A stretch of 64,000 nucleotides of DNA, taken from assembly GCF_028502605.1 (NCBI RefSeq), contig NC_079234.1, positions 4,340,001 to 4,404,000 of the forward strand, given 5' to 3'. The notes beneath the pieces were generated by a model. The model was not told the DNA's origin and did no database searches. It saw only the letters and a program-made list of their open reading frames with translations. The stretch comes from Trichoderma breve. Its lineage: Eukaryota; Ascomycota; Sordariomycetes; Hypocreales; Hypocreaceae. A program made the position numbers and the translations under genes. Below are positions 26,833 through 35,121 of this stretch, in pieces (position 1 is the first letter of the stretch; each line of letters starts with the position of its first letter).

Positions 26833-29593
26833 ATGGAGCGACCAGTGCCCGGCCAGCGCGAGGTTGGCAACTCTCAATTTGGCAACAATACTACTATTCA
26901 CCAAGACAACAATACTTTTAGCTTCCATCTACCACTACGACCAGCTCGACCTGCCATCCGCATTATTCCTTATCCACTCAATGAGGATCTTGTCGATCGC
27001 CCAGATATTATGGGAAAGGTCGATGCGCTTCTACCGCAGGCGCCACACACATACTGCAGTGCTGCTCTCTGGGGTCTAGGCGGATCAGGGTAGGTCCCAA
27101 ATTCTTATCATTCAAATCCACGTATGGATGCGGCTATTAAAAGCGTCGAGAAAAACGCAAATTGCACTCAACTATGCGTATCAACGATGCAACAAAAGGG
27201 ACTGTTCCGTCTTTTGGGTGCATGCCGACAGCGAGGCAACATTTTCGCAGGATTACAAAACAATAGCGCAGGCATTCGGCATAGACCAGCAACTCAAAGG
27301 CGAAGAGCTATATGCAGCTGTGTGCGATCAAATAGCGGCACAACCAGATTGGGTTCTTATTCTCGATAATACTGACGACTTACGGCAATTTGGTGTTGAG
27401 CAGGCGCCACAGCAGACAAACAGCTTATATCGATACATCCCTAAGGCGTCCACCGGGACAGTATTGTGGACTTCTCGCGATGCTCATATTGTAGGGACGC
27501 TCGTAGGTTCAACGCGAGGCATCGAGGTCGCCCGCATGAATTATGATGAGGCGGAAATTCTCTTGAAATTAGCAGGGAGCTTGGAGGTGGGAAGAGAAAA
27601 AATGGAAATCATTACCTTGTTAGAAGAACTCCAATGGCTTCCCTTGGCCATTATGCAAGCCGGGTCCTATATGAGACGGACATCAACATCGGCCAAGGAG
27701 TATTCATCTCTACTAGCGCAAAACAAGAAAAGATGGCAGCTTCTCAAAGAAGAGGAATTTGACAGGCATCGAAAGCCCTATGTTCCTAACAACGTCCTCG
27801 AAACGTTGAGCATCTCGATTGACCGCCTTAAACAAGACAGTGAGATTGCATACAACATTCTCCACGCCATCGCATACGTTTCCAACCAAAATATTCCGCA
27901 CGAAATCATAACAACTATTCTCAAGCACTGCGATAACAGCCTAGTTGATCCAGAGAAGTTGGAGGCTGAGGCTACCAAAGCCATCATGCGTCTGAAAGAA
28001 TTTTCTTTTCTTGGCGTGCACAGAACGGAGGACGGTGGTAGAAGCTACGAGATGCATAAACTCGTTCAGGAGGCAACACGATATGGCTTGAGTCTATGCA
28101 AGCCCAGCGTTCCTGATAACGTTTTCTCAAATAGGGAAGGCGAGCGGTATTTTTCTGGCATTGCAGTTCAGGCCATACTCGATCTTTTCCCGGATTCAGA
28201 ACTGGGGACATGGTCGCAGTGTGAGAAATACTTGGCACATGCAGTGCAGACAGTATACTGGGCAGATTTAAACGACAAACGACACGAGACAAGCCTGCTC
28301 TTCTATAGAGTGTCCCTGTTTCTTCATGACTGTGGACGATGGAGCGAAAGAGAACTTGTGAATAAAAAGGGATTGGAATTCGATCGAGAAATCTGGGGAG
28401 AAAAGCATCCAGATACATTCATCAGCATGGAACACCTTGCGACAACGTACCGGATACAATGCCGGCATAAAGAGGCAGAGGCTCTGGAAGTCCAAATTCT
28501 TGACCTCAGACGAGAAACTCTCGGAAAGAAGCACCCGCATACCTTAATGAGTATGGAGAACCTTGCAACAACGCACTGGGCCCAGTGTCAGTACAAAGAA
28601 TCAGAGGCTCTTGAAGTGCAAGTCCTTGACCTTCGGCGAGAAATTCTCGGAGATAAGCATCCAGATACAATTCAGACAATAGGAGCTCTTGGAATAATAT
28701 ACAGGGATCAAGGCCTGTATAAAAAGGCAGAGCCTCTTCTGGTTCAAGTCTTTGATCTTTCACGAGAAATTCTTGGAGACAAACATCTACGGGTAATATG
28801 GAGCATGGAAAGCCTGGGAATTACATACGGTCTACAAGGCCGATATAAGGAGGCGGAGGCTCTTCAAGTTCAAGTCTATGACCTCCGACGAGAAATTCTC
28901 GGAACTAGACATCCAGAGACGTTTCAGGGTATGTCGAATCTTTCATTAACATACTGGCGACAAGGCCGATATAAAGAGGCAGAGGCTCTTCAGCTTCAAG
29001 TCTTTAAGCTTCAACAAGAAATTCTCGGAGAAAGACACCCAGACACAATTCGGAGTATATCAAATCTTTCATCAATATATGGTAAACAAGGACGGCGTAA
29101 AGAGGCCGAGGCAGAGTCTATTCAAATTAAAGTCTTCAACTTTCGACGAGAAATTCTTGGAGATAAACATCCAGAGACAATATGGAGTATGGAATACCTT
29201 TCGTCAATATACGGTAAAAAAGGTCTGTATGAAGAGTCAGAGGCTCTAGCAGTTCAAGTACTAGATCTTCGACGGGAGAGTCTTGGGGAAGAGCATCCGG
29301 ACACTATCAGGGTCATGCACAACCTTGCCTGTACCTGGAAGGGACAAGGCCGTCATGATGACGCCCTTGCACAAATGGGAAAGTGTGTGGAGTATAAACG
29401 CTCCGTATTAGGGCCAGAGCATCCAGAAACAGCCCTTTCGGTCAAAGTTCTCGAAACGTGGGAACGTGAGGATCATATTCTGGAATCGAACGAAATTGAT
29501 AGCCAAAATGAGGAAACGGTGGGGGGGCCTCAGCAAGTGCAAACCAAAACGTCCAGATTACGAAAGATGGCAGACACATTGAACTGTTTTTAA
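26833..29593 (+). CDS. NLR-type NB-ARC/TPR protein
   Basis: STAND-class ATPase of the fungal NOD-like receptor group, thought to sense non-self or damage and oligomerise to trigger a partner effector. Exons 26833-27089 and 27151-29593 join inside the P-loop (61-bp intron) to 899 residues. Residues 1-40 are an Asn/Gly/Gln-rich lead (GNSQFGNNTTIHQDNN) in place of a catalytic effector domain. NB-ARC features: Walker A GLGGSGKT (81-88), Walker B WVLILDNTDD (about 153-162), sensor-like TGTVLWTSRD (187-196) and a GLPL-like QWLPLAIMQAGSY (247-259). A helical region follows, then nine kinesin-light-chain-type TPRs at about 470-855, each marked by G-x-x-HP-x-T. The intron inside the P-loop makes the unspliced frame appear to lack it. 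A HET-domain gene lies 300 bp downstream on the same strand. Confidence 0.9.
28390..29440 (+). repeat. tandem 126-bp TPR-coding repeats
   Basis: Nine copies of a 42-codon unit. The G-x-x-HP codons start at 28397, 28523 and 28649 and continue at 126-bp steps; one unit is 6 bp longer (extra Ala-Glu near 29110). Blocks such as AAAGAGGCAGAGGCTCT and CGACGAGAAATTCTCGGA recur almost unchanged at the DNA level. Confidence 0.85.
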
Positions 29594-29893
29594 TAAAATT
29601 CGGTAGGCAAAATATGTTGTTAGCTTAAGTTATTTGCAAAGACCCCCCAAAAATATAAATAAAGATAAATAATAAAAAATTTTCTCATCTACTCGAGAAT
29701 GCGCATTACACGTCTTACACCCCTTATGCATGCATCACGCGCTAGAACATGTTAAAGCTTCGCTGTGCGGGCCGAGTACAGCACAGCAATTATATCCCCT
29801 CATTTGATCCCCCCAAAGCTCTTCAAGCATCTCGAGGCAAATTTCCCATAACGGAGCTGAAAAAAAAGTATTCACTCTGCCAAACTTCACGCC

Positions 29894-32137
29894 ATGCGTC
29901 TACTCCATACAAAAGAGCTGGACACTGGGGGGTTTGAGCTAAAAGAATTCGGCCAAGAAAATGTCCCGCCCTACGCCATTCTGTCGCACACTTGGGGTGA
30001 AGAAGAAGTCACCTTTCAAGACATGACTCTTGGTCGCTTTGCAAACAAGAAAGGCTACGACAAGATCAAAGGCTGTTGTATCCTGGCAAGGGCTAACGGA
30101 TACGACTATGCCTGGGTAGACACCTGTTGCATCGACAAGACAAGCAGTGCTGAGCTGTCTGAGGCAATCAACTCCATGTACCAGTGGTACGTTGAAGCCG
30201 ATGTCTGCTATGGCTTTCTTGCAGACGTGCCGTCCAAGGTTGCTTTTTCGGAGAGCAGGTGGTTTACCAGAGGGTGGACGCTTCAAGAATTGATTGCACC
30301 AGAGACGATGATCTTCTTAGATGAAGCATGGAACGAGTTGGGTACCAGAGAAAGCCTGAAACAAGAAATCTCCAAGCGCACCGGCATACCTATGAGCGTT
30401 CTCTCTGGTTCCAGTCTCGGGAGTGTAAGTGTTGCGCAAAAAATGTCATGGGCCTCTTCAAGGCAAACATCACGGTCTGAAGACCGAGCCTACTGTCTGA
30501 TGGGCATATTTGGCATCAACATGCCATTATTATATGGCGAGGGGGACAGGGCCTTTATGAGGCTCCAAGAGGAGATCATGAAGGTGACGGACGACGACAG
30601 CATTTTCGCCTGGAGATCCAAAACCCAGCGCCACTCATCGCTATTGGCTACATCTCCAGATGCGTTTGAGCACTCCGGCAACATTGTCCGTAGGCGCACT
30701 GGCTGGCTTCCAGACAGCAGATCTTGGACAGTCAGTAACAAGGGTATTCGCCTAGAGCTATCTTATATGGGAGTAGGACACCAAGGACTGGGACTTGCCA
30801 TACTGCATTGCGCAGAACGCAACAGAAAGAGACACGACTTTATTGCGATATACCTCAAAGATGTATCCCTTACCATGGAGAACTTTGAGAGAGTCTGGTG
30901 CGAACGGTACGAGTTGTTTGATCCCATGCCTTTTCGACCAAGTCAACGCCCTCAAAGATGGATAAACGTTCGGCAACACCGTCCAGTAACAACGCGAATG
31001 CGAAATCGTCACCAGATAGGAAGCGCAAGTATTGCCGCGCCGGGGCAACCCCCGCCGAACCCTCGTGATGACCCTGATTGGGGTCTGTTCGATGCGACGA
31101 TAAATTTTATCAACGGTTCGTCAACACCGCCGCCAGTGAATTGGAATTCTGGAGAGCAGCCTTCGCTCCTCGACATGGCAAAGGCAGGGCGCGTGTTGGA
31201 GACGCAATGGCTACTTGCAGAGCGTTCCACCAAGCCCGATCAGAAGGATAGGAGTGGACGAACTGCTCTGTCATATGCAGCGGCTAATGGGCATGCCAAG
31301 ATTGTATGGCTGCTCCTAATGCGGCGTGATGTCAAGCCAGATGAGAAGGATTCAGGCGGACGAACGCCTCTGTCTCATGCGGCTAAAGAGGGTCATGCTG
31401 AAGTTGTCTGGCTCCTCTTGACCCGAGGGGATATCGATATCCACTCAAAGGATAATAAAGGCCAGACACCACTATTCCATGCAGCGGCAAACGGGCGCAA
31501 AACCATCATATCAATGTTGTTGGCTCGCGGAGAGTCCCAGCATCACTTGAGAGACGATTCCGGGAGGACGCCGCTCTCGTATGCGTCAGAAGGGGGACAC
31601 GAAGCCGCTGTAGAGATGTTCCTCGACCGAAGCGATATGGACGCAGATGCAAGAGACGATCAGGGACTAACTCCTCTCGCCTATGCCGCCTTTAACGGAC
31701 ACTATTCGGTCACCATCATGTTGATTGAGCAGGGAGCCGATATCGACTCACAGGATAATCATCGTCAGACGCCGCTGTGGTTAGCAACTCAGAAGGGCCA
31801 TGAGAGGATTGTCGATTTACTCCTCAATAACGGGGCCAATATGGAGATTAAGGGCTACGATGGTAGCACGCCGCTTTTATCTGCAGTTTGTCTAGGGCGG
31901 GATGACATTATGCAGCTGCTCATCGACAAAGGCGCAGATTTAAATACGACGAATGAATACGGCGAAACACCGCTCATTAGGGCCATCAGAGATGAACATG
32001 CGGCTATGGCCAAAATATTGATTGAAAAGGGTGCCAAAGTCGATGTGAAAGACAAGTACCACACAACTGCGCTGCAGTATGCATCTGAGAAGGGATACCA
32101 TGACATTGTTCAACTGCTAGGCCACAACGGTGCTTAA
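29894..32137 (+). CDS. HET-domain protein with C-terminal ankyrin repeats
   Basis: Putative cell-death effector of the heterokaryon-incompatibility class. Intronless, 747 residues. The HET domain starts almost at residue 1: PPYAILSHTWGEEEVTFQDM (25-44), YDYAWVDTCCIDK (about 69-81) and SRWFTRGWTLQELIAP (about 121-136). The block EDRAYCLMGIFGINMPLLYG (about 197-216) is the usual extension of HET-D/E-type proteins. After a Pro/Arg-rich linker (about 355-425), ten ankyrin repeats run to the end; repeats 2-9 are canonical (GRTPLSHAAKEGHAEVVWLL) and the tenth stops early at LLGHNGA. The start codon is the first ATG and begins the usual HET N-terminus MRLLHTKEL. It lies 300 bp after the NLR gene on the same strand. 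Sequence beyond the stop still encodes ankyrin pieces. Confidence 0.9.
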   Translation: MRLLHTKELDTGGFELKEFGQENVPPYAILSHTWGEEEVTFQDMTLGRFANKKGYDKIKGCCILARANGYDYAWVDTCCIDKTSSAELSEAINSMYQWYVEADVCYGFLADVPSKVAFSESRWFTRGWTLQELIAPETMIFLDEAWNELGTRESLKQEISKRTGIPMSVLSGSSLGSVSVAQKMSWASSRQTSRSEDRAYCLMGIFGINMPLLYGEGDRAFMRLQEEIMKVTDDDSIFAWRSKTQRHSSLLATSPDAFEHSGNIVRRRTGWLPDSRSWTVSNKGIRLELSYMGVGHQGLGLAILHCAERNRKRHDFIAIYLKDVSLTMENFERVWCERYELFDPMPFRPSQRPQRWINVRQHRPVTTRMRNRHQIGSASIAAPGQPPPNPRDDPDWGLFDATINFINGSSTPPPVNWNSGEQPSLLDMAKAGRVLETQWLLAERSTKPDQKDRSGRTALSYAAANGHAKIVWLLLMRRDVKPDEKDSGGRTPLSHAAKEGHAEVVWLLLTRGDIDIHSKDNKGQTPLFHAAANGRKTIISMLLARGESQHHLRDDSGRTPLSYASEGGHEAAVEMFLDRSDMDADARDDQGLTPLAYAAFNGHYSVTIMLIEQGADIDSQDNHRQTPLWLATQKGHERIVDLLLNNGANMEIKGYDGSTPLLSAVCLGRDDIMQLLIDKGADLNTTNEYGETPLIRAIRDEHAAMAKILIEKGAKVDVKDKYHTTALQYASEKGYHDIVQLLGHNGA

Positions 32138-32330: not shown

Positions 32331-32857
32331 GTTGATAGGCAGCCCACTGAAGAGAGATAGAGTCTTTCAGAAACAATGTGATTGCATTCTTTGACCATGA
32401 ACAGTGTTCTCTGGAGCATAGCATCGTACCTGCCAACGTTGATCCCGGTTGATCCTGGACTCGAGGCCGATCATTCATCGTGAATGAGAACAAACGATGC
32501 CAAGCTATTTTATTTAATTCAACGTTCGAACATTAAATGATGTACAAGATATTGCTTCGTATTAGACTTGAACAGTCGAACCATGGTGCTTCAAAGTGTC
32601 ACTTAATATTCGTCCACGGGATATTCCCGTCCAATGATCAAACGACTCTCCCATGGTGATACTTGCCTTCTTCAGAGCTTTTGCCCAAGTATGAGTATTG
32701 AAGACATCGCGGCCAACAGCGACACTAACCACTTATATCCCCTCGTACATAATCTTTTATCCTCCCTTCACAAATCTTATACCATGAGCCAACTCTCCAC
32801 CTGACTAAGTCCTAGATCCTACATACATGGGCACAGCCACGATGCCTACCCAACACG
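32331..32857. other. spacer between HET gene and RNA array
   Basis: No gene seen. The AT content rises; no fifth copy of the array core is found here. Confidence 0.5.
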
Positions 32858-32902
32858 CCAATCACAGTCGTCCTTTCCCTTGCTCAAACGTCCGATATAA
32901 AG
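32858..32902 (+). promoter_or_regulatory. CCAAT and TATA boxes of RNA unit 1
   Basis: CCAATCACAG begins at 32858 and ATATAAAG at 32895, 37 bp apart; the TATA-like box starts 27 bp before the TTCAGTGAAG element. Confidence 0.55.
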
Positions 32903-32921
32903 CAAGTTAAACACGTTGGTT

Positions 32922-33071
32922 TTCAGTGAAGTAGCTGAATAATCTCCAGTATGAGACTTGTTTTCCAGGGGGCTCTCTTCGGAGAGTTCCGTTCGCAGAA
33001 CTTGTACCCCAATTGGGAGCCTTCACTTTTTGTCACTCGGTTCGAGTGAGCTCTGTTGCACTCTTTTTTTT
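32922..33071 (+). ncRNA. candidate Pol III small RNA, unit 1
   Basis: Predicted transcript starts near TTCAGTGAAG. AGTGAAG (32925-32931) can pair with CTTCACT (33021-33027). TAGCTGAATAA just inside resembles an A box; GGTTCGAGT (33039-33047) resembles a B box. A hairpin CCC-AATT-GGG lies just before CTTCACT. A run of five T follows CTTCACT and a run of eight T ends the unit at 33071. The RNA could end at the first T-run (about 110 nt, with GTTCGA downstream as in yeast SNR6) or the second (150 nt). No known RNA family recognised. Confidence 0.55.
33064..33071 (+). terminator. T8 run, unit 1
   Basis: Eight consecutive T, the type of site at which RNA polymerase III stops. It begins 24 bp after the start of GTTCGA. 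Confidence 0.5.
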
Positions 33072-33385
33072 CTTTGGATCGTCCGTTTTTATCCCATTAT
33101 CATAGCATAGAACACCATGGGTTACATGTATGGAAATATCAGGTACCTACTCATAGCTATCTCCTTAGACCCGGCCATAAAAAATATGGCCTCAGAGACT
33201 CCAAATCCACAAGACAAGAATATAGCTAATAATCTATATCAACAAATCAGTCAATAATGTAAACTTCCTCCAAAAGCACTGGACAACATCCCATAACAAG
33301 CAATGATGATGCTGTACACAAGCCTTGCACCAGCCTGCTTACAGCTACAGCCCTGGATGTGACTCACCACCCCAGCTCTACTCAG

Positions 33386-33429
33386 CCAATCACAGTCCAA
33401 ATCTTGTTACAACAACACCCCTTATAAAG
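33386..33429 (+). promoter_or_regulatory. CCAAT and TATA boxes of RNA unit 2
   Basis: CCAATCACAG at 33386 and TTATAAAG at 33422, 36 bp apart; the TATA box again starts 27 bp before TTCAGTGAAG. Confidence 0.6.
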
Positions 33430-33448
33430 TAAATTAAACGAGCTGATT

Positions 33449-33594
33449 TTCAGTGAAGTAGCTTAAGAACTCTCCAAAAATGAGACATAGTTGGAAATGG
33501 GCGATCTTCGTCCCGTATCTAGTTCATCTACCCCATTCGGGGACTTCACTTTTTGTCACTCTGTTCGAGTAACGTCTGTTGCATTCTTTTTTTT
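33449..33594 (+). ncRNA. candidate Pol III small RNA, unit 2
   Basis: Same plan as unit 1: TTCAGTGAAG at 33449, CTTCACT at 33544-33550, GTTCGA at 33563-33568, T8 at 33587-33594. The hairpin before CTTCACT reads CCCC-ATTC-GGGG. The central part is alignable with unit 1 (CTCCA...ATGAGAC, TCTTCG, TACCCC). Confidence 0.58.
33587..33594 (+). terminator. T8 run, unit 2
   Basis: Eight T beginning 24 bp after the start of GTTCGA, the same distance as in unit 1. Confidence 0.5.
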
Positions 33595-33905
33595 ATTTTA
33601 TCTCTATCTGTCTTTCTATATGACAGGTTATATGTATGTAGATGCATTAGTAGATACTTTCGTAGACTTGGCCTTATTTTTACAACATCGGAGTCTCTCT
33701 CTACATTCATATCCACAAACTTGGAGTATATATGCCTAAATCTCTATCATCACGCCGATTTCCAACTTTCACTGTAAATCCATCCAGACGCATCATACGA
33801 TACCCCAGACCAAGCAATGATGCTGTACACAAGACTTACACCAGCCTAGAGCTCTGGCTCTCGGTGTGTGACTCACCCCCACATCGCCATCCCAGCTCCA
33901 ACAAG

Positions 33906-33950
33906 CCAATCACAGCCCGTCTCTCACCAACACAAACATCCCTTATCAAA
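33906..33950 (+). promoter_or_regulatory. CCAAT and TATA-like boxes of RNA unit 3
   Basis: CCAATCACAG at 33906 and TTATCAAA at 33943, 37 bp apart; the TATA-like box starts 27 bp before TTCAGTGAAG. Confidence 0.55.
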
Positions 33951-33969
33951 CAACTTTAACGAGCAGACA

Positions 33970-34080
33970 TTCAGTGAAGTAGCTGAATAACGCAAACAGT
34001 CATTGAATCGAAAGTTTTCTCCTCTTTGGAGCCTTCACTTTTTGTCCCTTGTTCGAAAAGCTGTTGTGGCATCTTTTTTT
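33970..34080 (+). ncRNA. candidate Pol III small RNA, unit 3
   Basis: TTCAGTGAAG at 33970, CTTCACT at 34033-34039, GTTCGA at 34051-34056, T7 at 34074-34080. The variable middle is about 37 bp shorter than in units 1 and 2. The hairpin before CTTCACT is CTCC-TCTTT-GGAG. Confidence 0.55.
34074..34080 (+). terminator. T7 run, unit 3
   Basis: Seven T beginning 23 bp after the start of GTTCGA. Confidence 0.5.
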
Positions 34081-34355
34081 GCTCTGCTCTTATTCTATAG
34101 CACATACCTGTAACAGACTAAATCGTAAACTTGGTAAATACACACTTACACCAGCCGCCCAGTATGTTGCGGCGTCATTGTCGCATTATTCATTGAAATA
34201 TATTCTATTACAGAGCAATATTTTGTTTTCGCTATTCCAACACATCTCATAACATCACCAAGCCGTCTCTCAAAATCCCAAGCAGTATGCCAGCATGACT
34301 CACCCCACCAACATTCGTAGCTCCCGCTGCGCCTCACCAGTAGGCTCCAGCATCC

Positions 34356-34363
34356 TTATAAGC
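34356..34363 (+). promoter_or_regulatory. TATA-like box of RNA unit 4
   Basis: TTATAAGC, 27 bp before TTCAGTGAAG as in the other units. No intact CCAATCACAG is present at the matching upstream position. Confidence 0.45.
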
Positions 34364-34382
34364 CAAAACAAACGAGCTGAAA

Positions 34383-34488
34383 TTCAGTGAAGTAGCTGCT
34401 TTAACCACTTTGGAGTCCTCTTACACTGCTCCCCCAAAGGAGTCTTCACTTTTGCTCCTCTGTTCGAATATTCTTTATGTCGTATTTT
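34383..34488 (+). ncRNA. candidate Pol III small RNA, unit 4
   Basis: TTCAGTGAAG at 34383, CTTCACT at 34444-34450, GTTCGA at 34462-34467, and only a T4 run at 34485-34488. The hairpin before CTTCACT is CTCC-CCCAAA-GGAG. The weaker T-run and the missing CCAAT box suggest this is the least active or a decaying copy. Confidence 0.45.
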
Positions 34489-35121
34489 GCTTACCGGGCT
34501 ATTGTTATTTTTGCATGATGCTCCCAGCCATGTACCCATATATTGACATTTTACACATACCTACATCCAGCTTGATCTGATAAATTTATCATTTCTTCCA
34601 CTTTTCTAGACTGTTCAAATATACCTTACAAACAGGTAGTAGCATGCTATAGTCTCTGTGTCATCACTTGCTTTGGCGCAACCTTACATCGCACATCTTA
34701 TATCCAAGTAACAAATTACACTATGCTCGCCATGTACGATCAACACCCTTGGACACGTGCAGCGGAGCAAACCACAAACAACCACTAGGACTCAAACCAA
34801 AACGTCACAATCAAGGCAAAGCATAGACAATCAATGTGGCAAGTCAATCAACTCGTATTTTTATTCATCTCTACCCATATGCTGCACGTCAGTGCTGTCC
34901 CTTTTCCATCCCCAATCCTTCCCACAGTTGTGCCCAAAAAATAGACCAAAAAAGACAAGACCAAATAAAAAATAAAGGAAATAAATATTCTCTTTTTACA
35001 AAAACGACAAGGCGTCCTAGCGATCAAGGGTGATCAGATCTTCGCGGAACAGAGCAAAAGAGAATCAAGAGTAAAAGAAAAAATGCTCGAGTTTTTCCCA
35101 AGCATATCGCATATATACGTT
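34489..35121. other. spacer and 3' flank of the GH55 gene
   Basis: AT-rich. Contains A-rich stretches suited to 3' processing of the minus-strand glucanase. No gene seen. Confidence 0.5.

What the first reader, a model, noticed from the sequence alone, without database searches (positions are those of the whole stretch)
32858..34488. Four tandem copies of an unknown small-RNA gene with RNA polymerase III architecture
Seen: four units whose spacers have drifted but whose core elements keep fixed spacing. The TATA-like box (ATATAAAG, TTATAAAG, TTATCAAA, TTATAAGC) starts exactly 27 bp before TTCAGTGAAG in all four. CTTCACT starts 18-19 bp before GTTCGA in all four, and the T-run (8, 8, 7, 4 T) starts 23-24 bp after GTTCGA. 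Three units also have CCAATCACAG 36-37 bp before the TATA box. Known: TATA near -30, A box, GGTTCGA-type B box and T-runs are class III signals, as in SNR6 and the Pol III-driven milRNA loci of Neurospora. Inference: a Pol III small-RNA gene family, about 70-110 nt or 110-150 nt depending on which T-run stops transcription. It matches no tRNA, 5S, U6, 7SL or RNase P RNA that I can recognise.
Basis: partly seen in the sequence, partly recalled or inferred. Interest (0 to 1): 0.9.

Follow-up and report, generated by a model that had tools for sequence, protein, structure and literature searches.

The report
Four fungal Pol III small-RNA genes
A Trichoderma genome carries a row of four related genes that look built to make short, closed-ended RNAs of a kind not in the RNA-family library searched; nobody has yet shown here that they are transcribed or what they do.

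Summary
In detail: four tandem units at 32858-34488, all stated spacings confirmed. The organism is a Trichoderma (neighbouring GH55 protein 97% identical to T. aggressivum). CTTCACTTTT-N6..14-GTTCGA occurs exactly four times in 38.5 Mb, all here. No tRNA and no Rfam match at gathering score. If transcription starts 30 bases after the TATA octamer begins, the RNA starts AGUGAAG and ends CUUCAC plus U4/5, so a 7-bp stem closes the RNA directly before a T-run of a length also found at tRNA genes here. Predicted RNAs: 107, 103, 71, 68 nt. TATA spacing matches the genome's SRP gene (29 bases); U6 and SRP carry GTTCGA. Best reading: a four-gene Pol III family of closed-stem, Y/sbRNA-like RNAs with an SNR6-like downstream B box and unusual upstream CCAATCACAG and TGACTCA motifs. 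Ro60 (TROVE) was not detected, so it is not filed as a Y RNA. Transcription, conservation in other species and function could not be tested. The fourth unit is weaker.

The parts
32858..32867 (+). u1 upstream element CCAATCACAG, 37 bp before TATA
32895..32902 (+). u1 TATA-like box ATATAAAG
   Evidence: spacing compared with the SRP gene
32925..33031 (+). u1 predicted RNA, 107 nt; 5' AGUGAAG pairs with 3' CUUCACU, ends at T5
   Evidence: inference, no transcript seen
33039..33049 (+). u1 B-box-like GGTTCGAGTGA, downstream of the first T-run
   Evidence: 8 of 10 informative positions of the (recalled) consensus
33064..33071 (+). u1 second T-run (T8), possible back-up terminator
33360..33366 (+). 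u2 TGACTCA, 62 bp before TATA
33386..33395 (+). u2 CCAATCACAG
33422..33429 (+). u2 TATA box TTATAAAG
33452..33554 (+). u2 predicted RNA, 103 nt
   Evidence: inference
33562..33572 (+). u2 B-box-like TGTTCGAGTAA (7 of 10)
33587..33594 (+). u2 second T-run (T8)
33869..33875 (+). u3 TGACTCA, 74 bp before TATA
33906..33915 (+). u3 CCAATCACAG
33943..33950 (+). u3 TATA-like TTATCAAA
33973..34043 (+). u3 predicted RNA, 71 nt
   Evidence: inference
34050..34060 (+). u3 B-box-like TGTTCGAAAAG (6 of 10)
34074..34080 (+). u3 second T-run (T7)
34296..34302 (+). u4 TGACTCA, 60 bp before TATA
34356..34363 (+). u4 TATA-like TTATAAGC
34386..34453 (+). u4 predicted RNA, 68 nt; weakest unit (T4, weak A box, no CCAATCACAG)
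   Evidence: inference
34461..34471 (+). u4 B-box-like TGTTCGAATAT (7 of 10)
34485..34488 (+). u4 second T-run (T4)

Best explanation
Each unit is a gene for a short RNA made by RNA polymerase III. TFIIIB is placed by the TATA box. TFIIIC is helped by an A-box-like TAGCTGAATAA just inside the RNA and by a GTTCGA B box just downstream of it, as in yeast SNR6 (recalled). Transcription starts at the A of CAGTGAAG and ends in the T4/T5 after CTTCAC, giving RNAs of 107, 103, 71 and 68 nt whose 5' and 3' ends pair in an invariant 7-bp stem followed by a U-tail. The loops vary between units. Invariant ends with variable loops suggest that one protein or complex holds the stem, as with Y, sb or vault RNAs, while the loops differ in what they bind. 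CCAATCACAG and TGACTCA at this distance upstream, not found at the tRNA, U6 or SRP genes examined, suggest that the array is regulated (for example by a CCAAT-binding complex and a Gcn4/Cpc1-type bZIP factor; factor names recalled) rather than housekeeping. Shown: the sequence elements, spacing, copy number, complementarity and predicted folding. Inferred: transcription, ends, protein partner, regulation and function.
For: Spacing and invariance. Uniqueness in the genome. 7 of 7 complementarity of the two blocks; the stem is in the predicted minimum-energy fold of 4 of 4 trimmed RNAs. u1 and u2 fold better than shuffles (z -2.1 and -3.0). TTATAAA lies 29 bases before the SRP match start and TATATATTA 28 bases before the presumed U6 start, against 30 bases here from octamer to proposed start; SRP has CGTTCGACGCC inside and U6 has GTTCGAATC in what reads as an intron. 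First run of 4 or more T after 22 tRNA genes: T4 3, T5 5, T6 8, T7 5, T9 1. A-box-like match 6 of 7 informative positions in u1-u3; 0.9% of window positions score that well. A short hairpin directly before CTTCACT is possible in all four; in 0.3% of 2000 shuffle sets all four reach the lowest observed score (scoring rule set after seeing the units).
Against: No transcript data. No relatives from other species could be searched. The terminal stem never varies among the four units, so there is no covariation to prove pairing. u3 and u4 fold little or no better than shuffles (z -0.6 and -1.2), and with three extra 5' and two extra 3' bases the minimum-energy fold of u3 loses the stem. B boxes match the recalled consensus only 6-8 of 10. 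u4 has a weak A box (4 of 7), T4 runs and no CCAATCACAG. The 3' hairpin and the GCU/AGC extension of the stem partly exclude each other, and singly the hairpins are matched by 5.6-29% of shuffles. RNAalifold on u1+u2 did not return the terminal stem; the alignment had slipped by one base there. The TATA of the RNase P gene lies 59 bases before its Rfam match start. 3 of 22 tRNA genes have CCAATCA within 40 bp of the gene, though none has CCAATCACAG within 150 bp.
Confidence: 0.66

Rival explanations
1. Longer Pol III RNAs: the first T-run is read through and the second one ends transcription, so the B box is inside RNAs of 147, 143, 108 and 103 nt, possibly trimmed later.
For: T8, T8 and T7 are longer than T5; 14 of 22 tRNA genes here have a first T-run of 6 or more; an internal B box is the usual type 2 layout (recalled); u1 and u2 stay 13 of 17 identical after GTTCGA.
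Against: The stem that closes the RNA ends exactly at the first T-run. T5 is the first run at 5 of 22 tRNA genes. After GTTCGA the five other unit pairs are only 6-9 of 17 identical. The second run of u4 is only T4.
Confidence: 0.2
2. Pol III milRNA precursors, as reported for Neurospora: the RNA is cut into small RNAs of about 20 nt.
For: Pol III makes the major milRNAs of Neurospora (PMC3547838, passages); one hairpin locus is shared by Cordyceps and T. reesei (PMC9757828, passages), whose sequence I could not compare.
Against: No long hairpin in 4 of 4 units. The conserved parts are the ends, not a duplex arm pair. milR-1 has no predicted A or B box. A full-text search for five short strings of the units found one unrelated paper.
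Confidence: 0.08
3. A TFIIIC-bound DNA boundary or insulator between the HET-ankyrin gene and the GH55 gene, where the RNA does not matter.
For: Four B-box-like sites in tandem between two genes.
Against: Does not explain the invariant complementary blocks, the TATA spacing or the T-run at the end of the stem.
Confidence: 0.05
4. Inactive relics of duplicated Pol III genes or of a SINE.
For: u4 lacks CCAATCACAG and has weak boxes.
Against: Blocks are identical in all pairs while spacers have drifted; no dispersed copies found.
Confidence: 0.04

Closest known systems
SNR6/U6 genes of fungi
   Same: TATA near -30, A-box-like element, B box outside the mature RNA sequence (downstream in yeast SNR6, recalled; in what reads as an intron in this genome)
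   Different: RNA is not U6; no Rfam match; upstream CCAATCACAG and TGACTCA motifs absent from U6 here
Y RNAs and nematode stem-bulge RNAs
   Same: Small Pol III RNAs, 5' and 3' ends paired, conserved lower stem, variable loop; the vertebrate Ro60 site is described as a 7-bp helix with a bulged C and a 3-nt bulge opposite (PMC4726728, passages); here a 7-bp stem, with a UA bulge before GCU/AGC pairing in the predicted folds of u1 and u4
   Different: No TROVE protein detected in the genome; no Rfam match; A-box-like and downstream B-box-like elements; [quoted passage not shown]
Vault RNAs
   Same: Short Pol III RNAs (84-141 nt, clustered; abstract of PMC8287541 as shown in the search listing)
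   Different: B box lies outside the proposed RNA; MVP repeats not found, but that search rang in no control genome, so absence is not shown
Neurospora Pol III milRNA loci
   Same: TATA-like element and T-run; in a filamentous ascomycete (PMC3547838, passages)
   Different: No long hairpin; conserved ends rather than arms

Membership tests
Pol III-transcribed small-RNA gene | TATA-like element about 30 bp before the start | tested here: met
   27 bp to TTCAGTGAAG in 4 of 4; SRP 29 and U6 28 bases agree, RNase P 59 does not. The start itself is inferred
Pol III-transcribed small-RNA gene | Terminating T-run | tested here: met
   T5 in u1-u3, T4 in u4; both lengths are first runs at tRNA genes here, 5 and 3 of 22
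Pol III-transcribed small-RNA gene | A and B boxes | tested here: inconclusive
   A-box-like 6, 6, 6, 4 of 7; B-box-like 8, 7, 6, 7 of 10 informative positions; consensus recalled
Pol III-transcribed small-RNA gene | Actual transcription by Pol III | not testable with these tools
   No RNA or ChIP data at hand
Y RNA / sbRNA | Ro60 (TROVE) partner in the genome | tested here: not met
   0 matches for PF05731 in own genome; control rang in 1 of 14 genomes, Deinobacterium chartae. Six-frame search without regard to introns, so a strongly split gene could be missed
Y RNA / sbRNA | Match to a known RNA family | tested here: not met
   0 at gathering score in the window; at E up to 10 over 32600-34800, 2 weak matches (LPR69, PVT1_3), neither over a predicted RNA as a whole
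Y RNA / sbRNA | 5'/3' terminal stem | tested here: met
   7 of 7 complementary in 4 of 4; present in predicted fold of 4 of 4 trimmed RNAs, 3 of 4 with extra end bases
Vault RNA | Major vault protein in the genome | tested here: inconclusive
   0 matches, but no control rang either
milRNA precursor | Long hairpin | tested here: not met
   Longest uninterrupted predicted helix 9 bp, in u1
tRNA or tRNA-derived SINE | tRNA fold or dispersed copies | tested here: not met
   ARAGORN 0 in the window (bacterial code); u2 as query finds only units of this array

The most novel reading that the evidence does not exclude
A fungal counterpart of Y/sb RNAs that works without a recognisable Ro60: a regulated, tandem family of closed-stem Pol III RNAs with one shared protein-binding stem and four different loops, switched on by CCAAT-binding and Gcn4-type factors.
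Probability: 0.3. Interest if true: 0.78.

Novelty: new variant of a known kind. Interest (0 to 1): 0.62.

Why it matters
Few Pol III small RNAs are described in filamentous fungi beyond tRNA, 5S, U6, SRP, RNase P and milRNA precursors (recalled). [quoted passage not shown] A closed-stem family with four loops and stress-type upstream motifs would give a tractable system, in a laboratory-friendly fungus, for asking what such RNAs do without Ro60 and how a Pol III gene is regulated by upstream factors.

Tried and rejected
Rfam at gathering score (whole window) and at E up to 10 (32600-34800): nothing credible.

Cross-species search: gapped patterns in viral contigs (1 and 0 hits) and genome contigs (4 hits; there only one gap range, 45-75, which covers the short units but not u1 and u2). 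5 of 5 hits judged chance: none has TTC before AGTGAAG or GTTCGA within 40 bp after; one, L030, has TATA 24 bp upstream.

Of the 53 places with TTCAGTGAAGTAGCT at up to 2 mismatches (27 forward, 26 reverse) the four units are the only exact ones. 16 of the other 49 were examined on the right strand: 0 of 16 has CTTCACT or GTTCGA within 145 bp downstream. The other 33 were not fetched. The reversed control gave 81 places, so such hits are chance level.

RNAalifold on two unit pairs showed 1 both-sides change each, too few sequences to count. A covariance model (R1) finds the four units in the window, from which it was built, plus one chance match at E 1.1.

Papers: ten searches showed no description of this family in their listings. 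Two returned no paper; two listings were capped, 20 of 46 and 20 of 27.

Full report
OBSERVATION. The window lies on contig C3 of a 38.5-Mb, 9-contig genome. The GH55 glucanase gene to the right of the array encodes a protein 97% identical to one of Trichoderma aggressivum and 95% to one of Trichoderma sp. SZMC 28013, so I take the organism to be a Trichoderma. ARAGORN found no tRNA in the window (run with the bacterial setting). Rfam gave no match at gathering score in the window and, at E up to 10 over 32600-34800, only two weak matches to unrelated families (LPR69 and PVT1_3).

COPIES. TTCAGTGAAGTAGCT occurs exactly 4 times in the genome. AGTGAAG-N40..70-CTTCACTTTT finds u3 and u4 only; that gap range cannot hold the longer u1 and u2, and longer gaps were not searched. 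CTTCACTTTT-N6..14-GTTCGA finds the four units and nothing else, 0 for the reversed control. u2 as a DNA query finds itself, u1 (75%) and two parts of u3 (75% and 78%), nothing elsewhere at E up to 10; it misses u4, so copies as diverged as u4 could escape that search. CCAATCACAG-N25..50-TATAAA finds u1 and u2 only. The own genome could not be searched with the covariance model.

CONSTRAINT. Three blocks (15, 10 and 6 bases) are identical in all six unit pairs. Of columns without gaps, 25 of 139 upstream, 7 of 19 in the inner loop and 13 of 86 downstream are invariant in all four. The blocks were chosen for being invariant, so the contrast is descriptive, but it suggests that the copies are old and that the blocks were kept.

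AGTGAAG and CTTCACT are perfect complements. A start at the A, 30 bases after the TATA octamer begins, gives an RNA whose first base pairs with the first U of the T-run. The predicted fold of the trimmed RNA closes this stem in 4 of 4 units; with extra end bases (up to three 5' and two 3') it does so in 3 of 4, u3 failing. u1 and u2 are more stable than shuffles (z -2.1, -3.0), u3 and u4 hardly (z -0.6, -1.2). After the stem, a UA bulge and GCU/AGC pairing extend it in the predicted folds of u1 and u4 and in the joint fold of u3 and u4. A 3-5-bp hairpin directly before CTTCACT is possible in all four with different letters; in 0.3% of 2000 shuffle sets all four reach the lowest observed score, but singly the hairpins are weak (5.6-29% of shuffles), the scoring was set after seeing the units, and the hairpin competes with the GCU/AGC extension.

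POL III COMPARISON IN THE SAME GENOME. The SRP RNA gene has TTATAAA 29 bases before the start of its Rfam match and CGTTCGACGCC inside. The U6 gene has TATATATTA 28 bases before its presumed start, reads as split by two introns and has GTTCGAATC in the first. The RNase P RNA gene has GTATAAAA, but 59 bases before its Rfam match start, and a T7 behind it; either the gene has a leader or it does not follow the rule. Among 22 distinct tRNA genes found near 28 GGTTCGAATCC sites, the first run of 4 or more T has length 4 in 3, 5 in 5, 6 in 8, 7 in 5 and 9 in 1. T5 thus looks like an ordinary terminator here; T4 occurs, with a longer run behind it in all three cases seen. The tRNA sample is biased to that B-box variant. 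7 of these 22 have TATA between -50 and -15; 0 of 22 has CCAATCA between -150 and -40 or TGACTCA within 150 bp, but 3 of 22 have CCAATCA within 40 bp of the gene; 0 of 22 has CCAATCACAG within 150 bp. U6 and SRP have neither CCAAT nor TGACTCA within about 300 bp; RPR1 has CCAAT at -244 and -32 relative to the Rfam match and no TGACTCA. The upstream motifs at their distances therefore look particular to the array: CCAATCACAG in 3 of 4 units, TGACTCA in 3 of 4 (u1 has TGACTAA further up). The factors named for them are recalled, not tested.

MECHANISM. I commit to Pol III transcription of short closed-stem RNAs, ending at the first T-run, with the B box just downstream. I put this at about 0.66, and a protein-scaffold role of Y/sb type at about half of that. 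The longer form ending at the second T-run is the main rival (0.2).

MEMBERSHIP. It works like a Y or sb RNA in outline, but TROVE was not detected (the control rang in 1 of 14 genomes) and no Rfam model matches at its cut-off, so it is not filed there. Vault protein repeats were not found either, but that control rang nowhere. The milRNA reading lacks a long hairpin. [quoted passage not shown] PMC3547838 (passages) describes Neurospora Pol III milRNA loci; PMC9757828 (passages) reports a hairpin locus found in 15 Sordariomycetes and in T. reesei, whose sequence I could not compare; PMC5640933 and PMC8297844 (passages) gave nothing on this family in what I saw. Ten paper searches showed no description, which covers only the listings of the open library searched.

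LIMITS. No RNA data and no other fungal genome could be searched. The fourth unit is weaker in most elements: TATA, A box, T-runs and the missing CCAATCACAG. The terminal stem shows no covariation because it never varies.

Noticed in passing
L022 (G000:C3:3413826-3416894, minus strand): The U6 gene reads as split by two introns, with a GTTCGAATC box in the first; the Rfam U6 match covers only part and stays below the cut-off (34.7 against 44 bits).
   Followed up: partly
window 33360, 33869, 34296: TGACTCA, a Gcn4/Cpc1-type site (recalled), lies 60-74 bp before the TATA of u2-u4; u1 has TGACTAA 93 bp before its TATA.
   Followed up: partly
window 27080-29593 and 29861-32137: Left of the array lie an ORF with many TPR repeats and a HET-ankyrin ORF, of the kind linked to fungal self/non-self recognition (link recalled; domains from Pfam).
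   Followed up: partly
window 33306-33336 and 33817-33847: A 31-bp stretch before u2 and u3 is 94% identical although much of the spacer has drifted.
   Followed up: no
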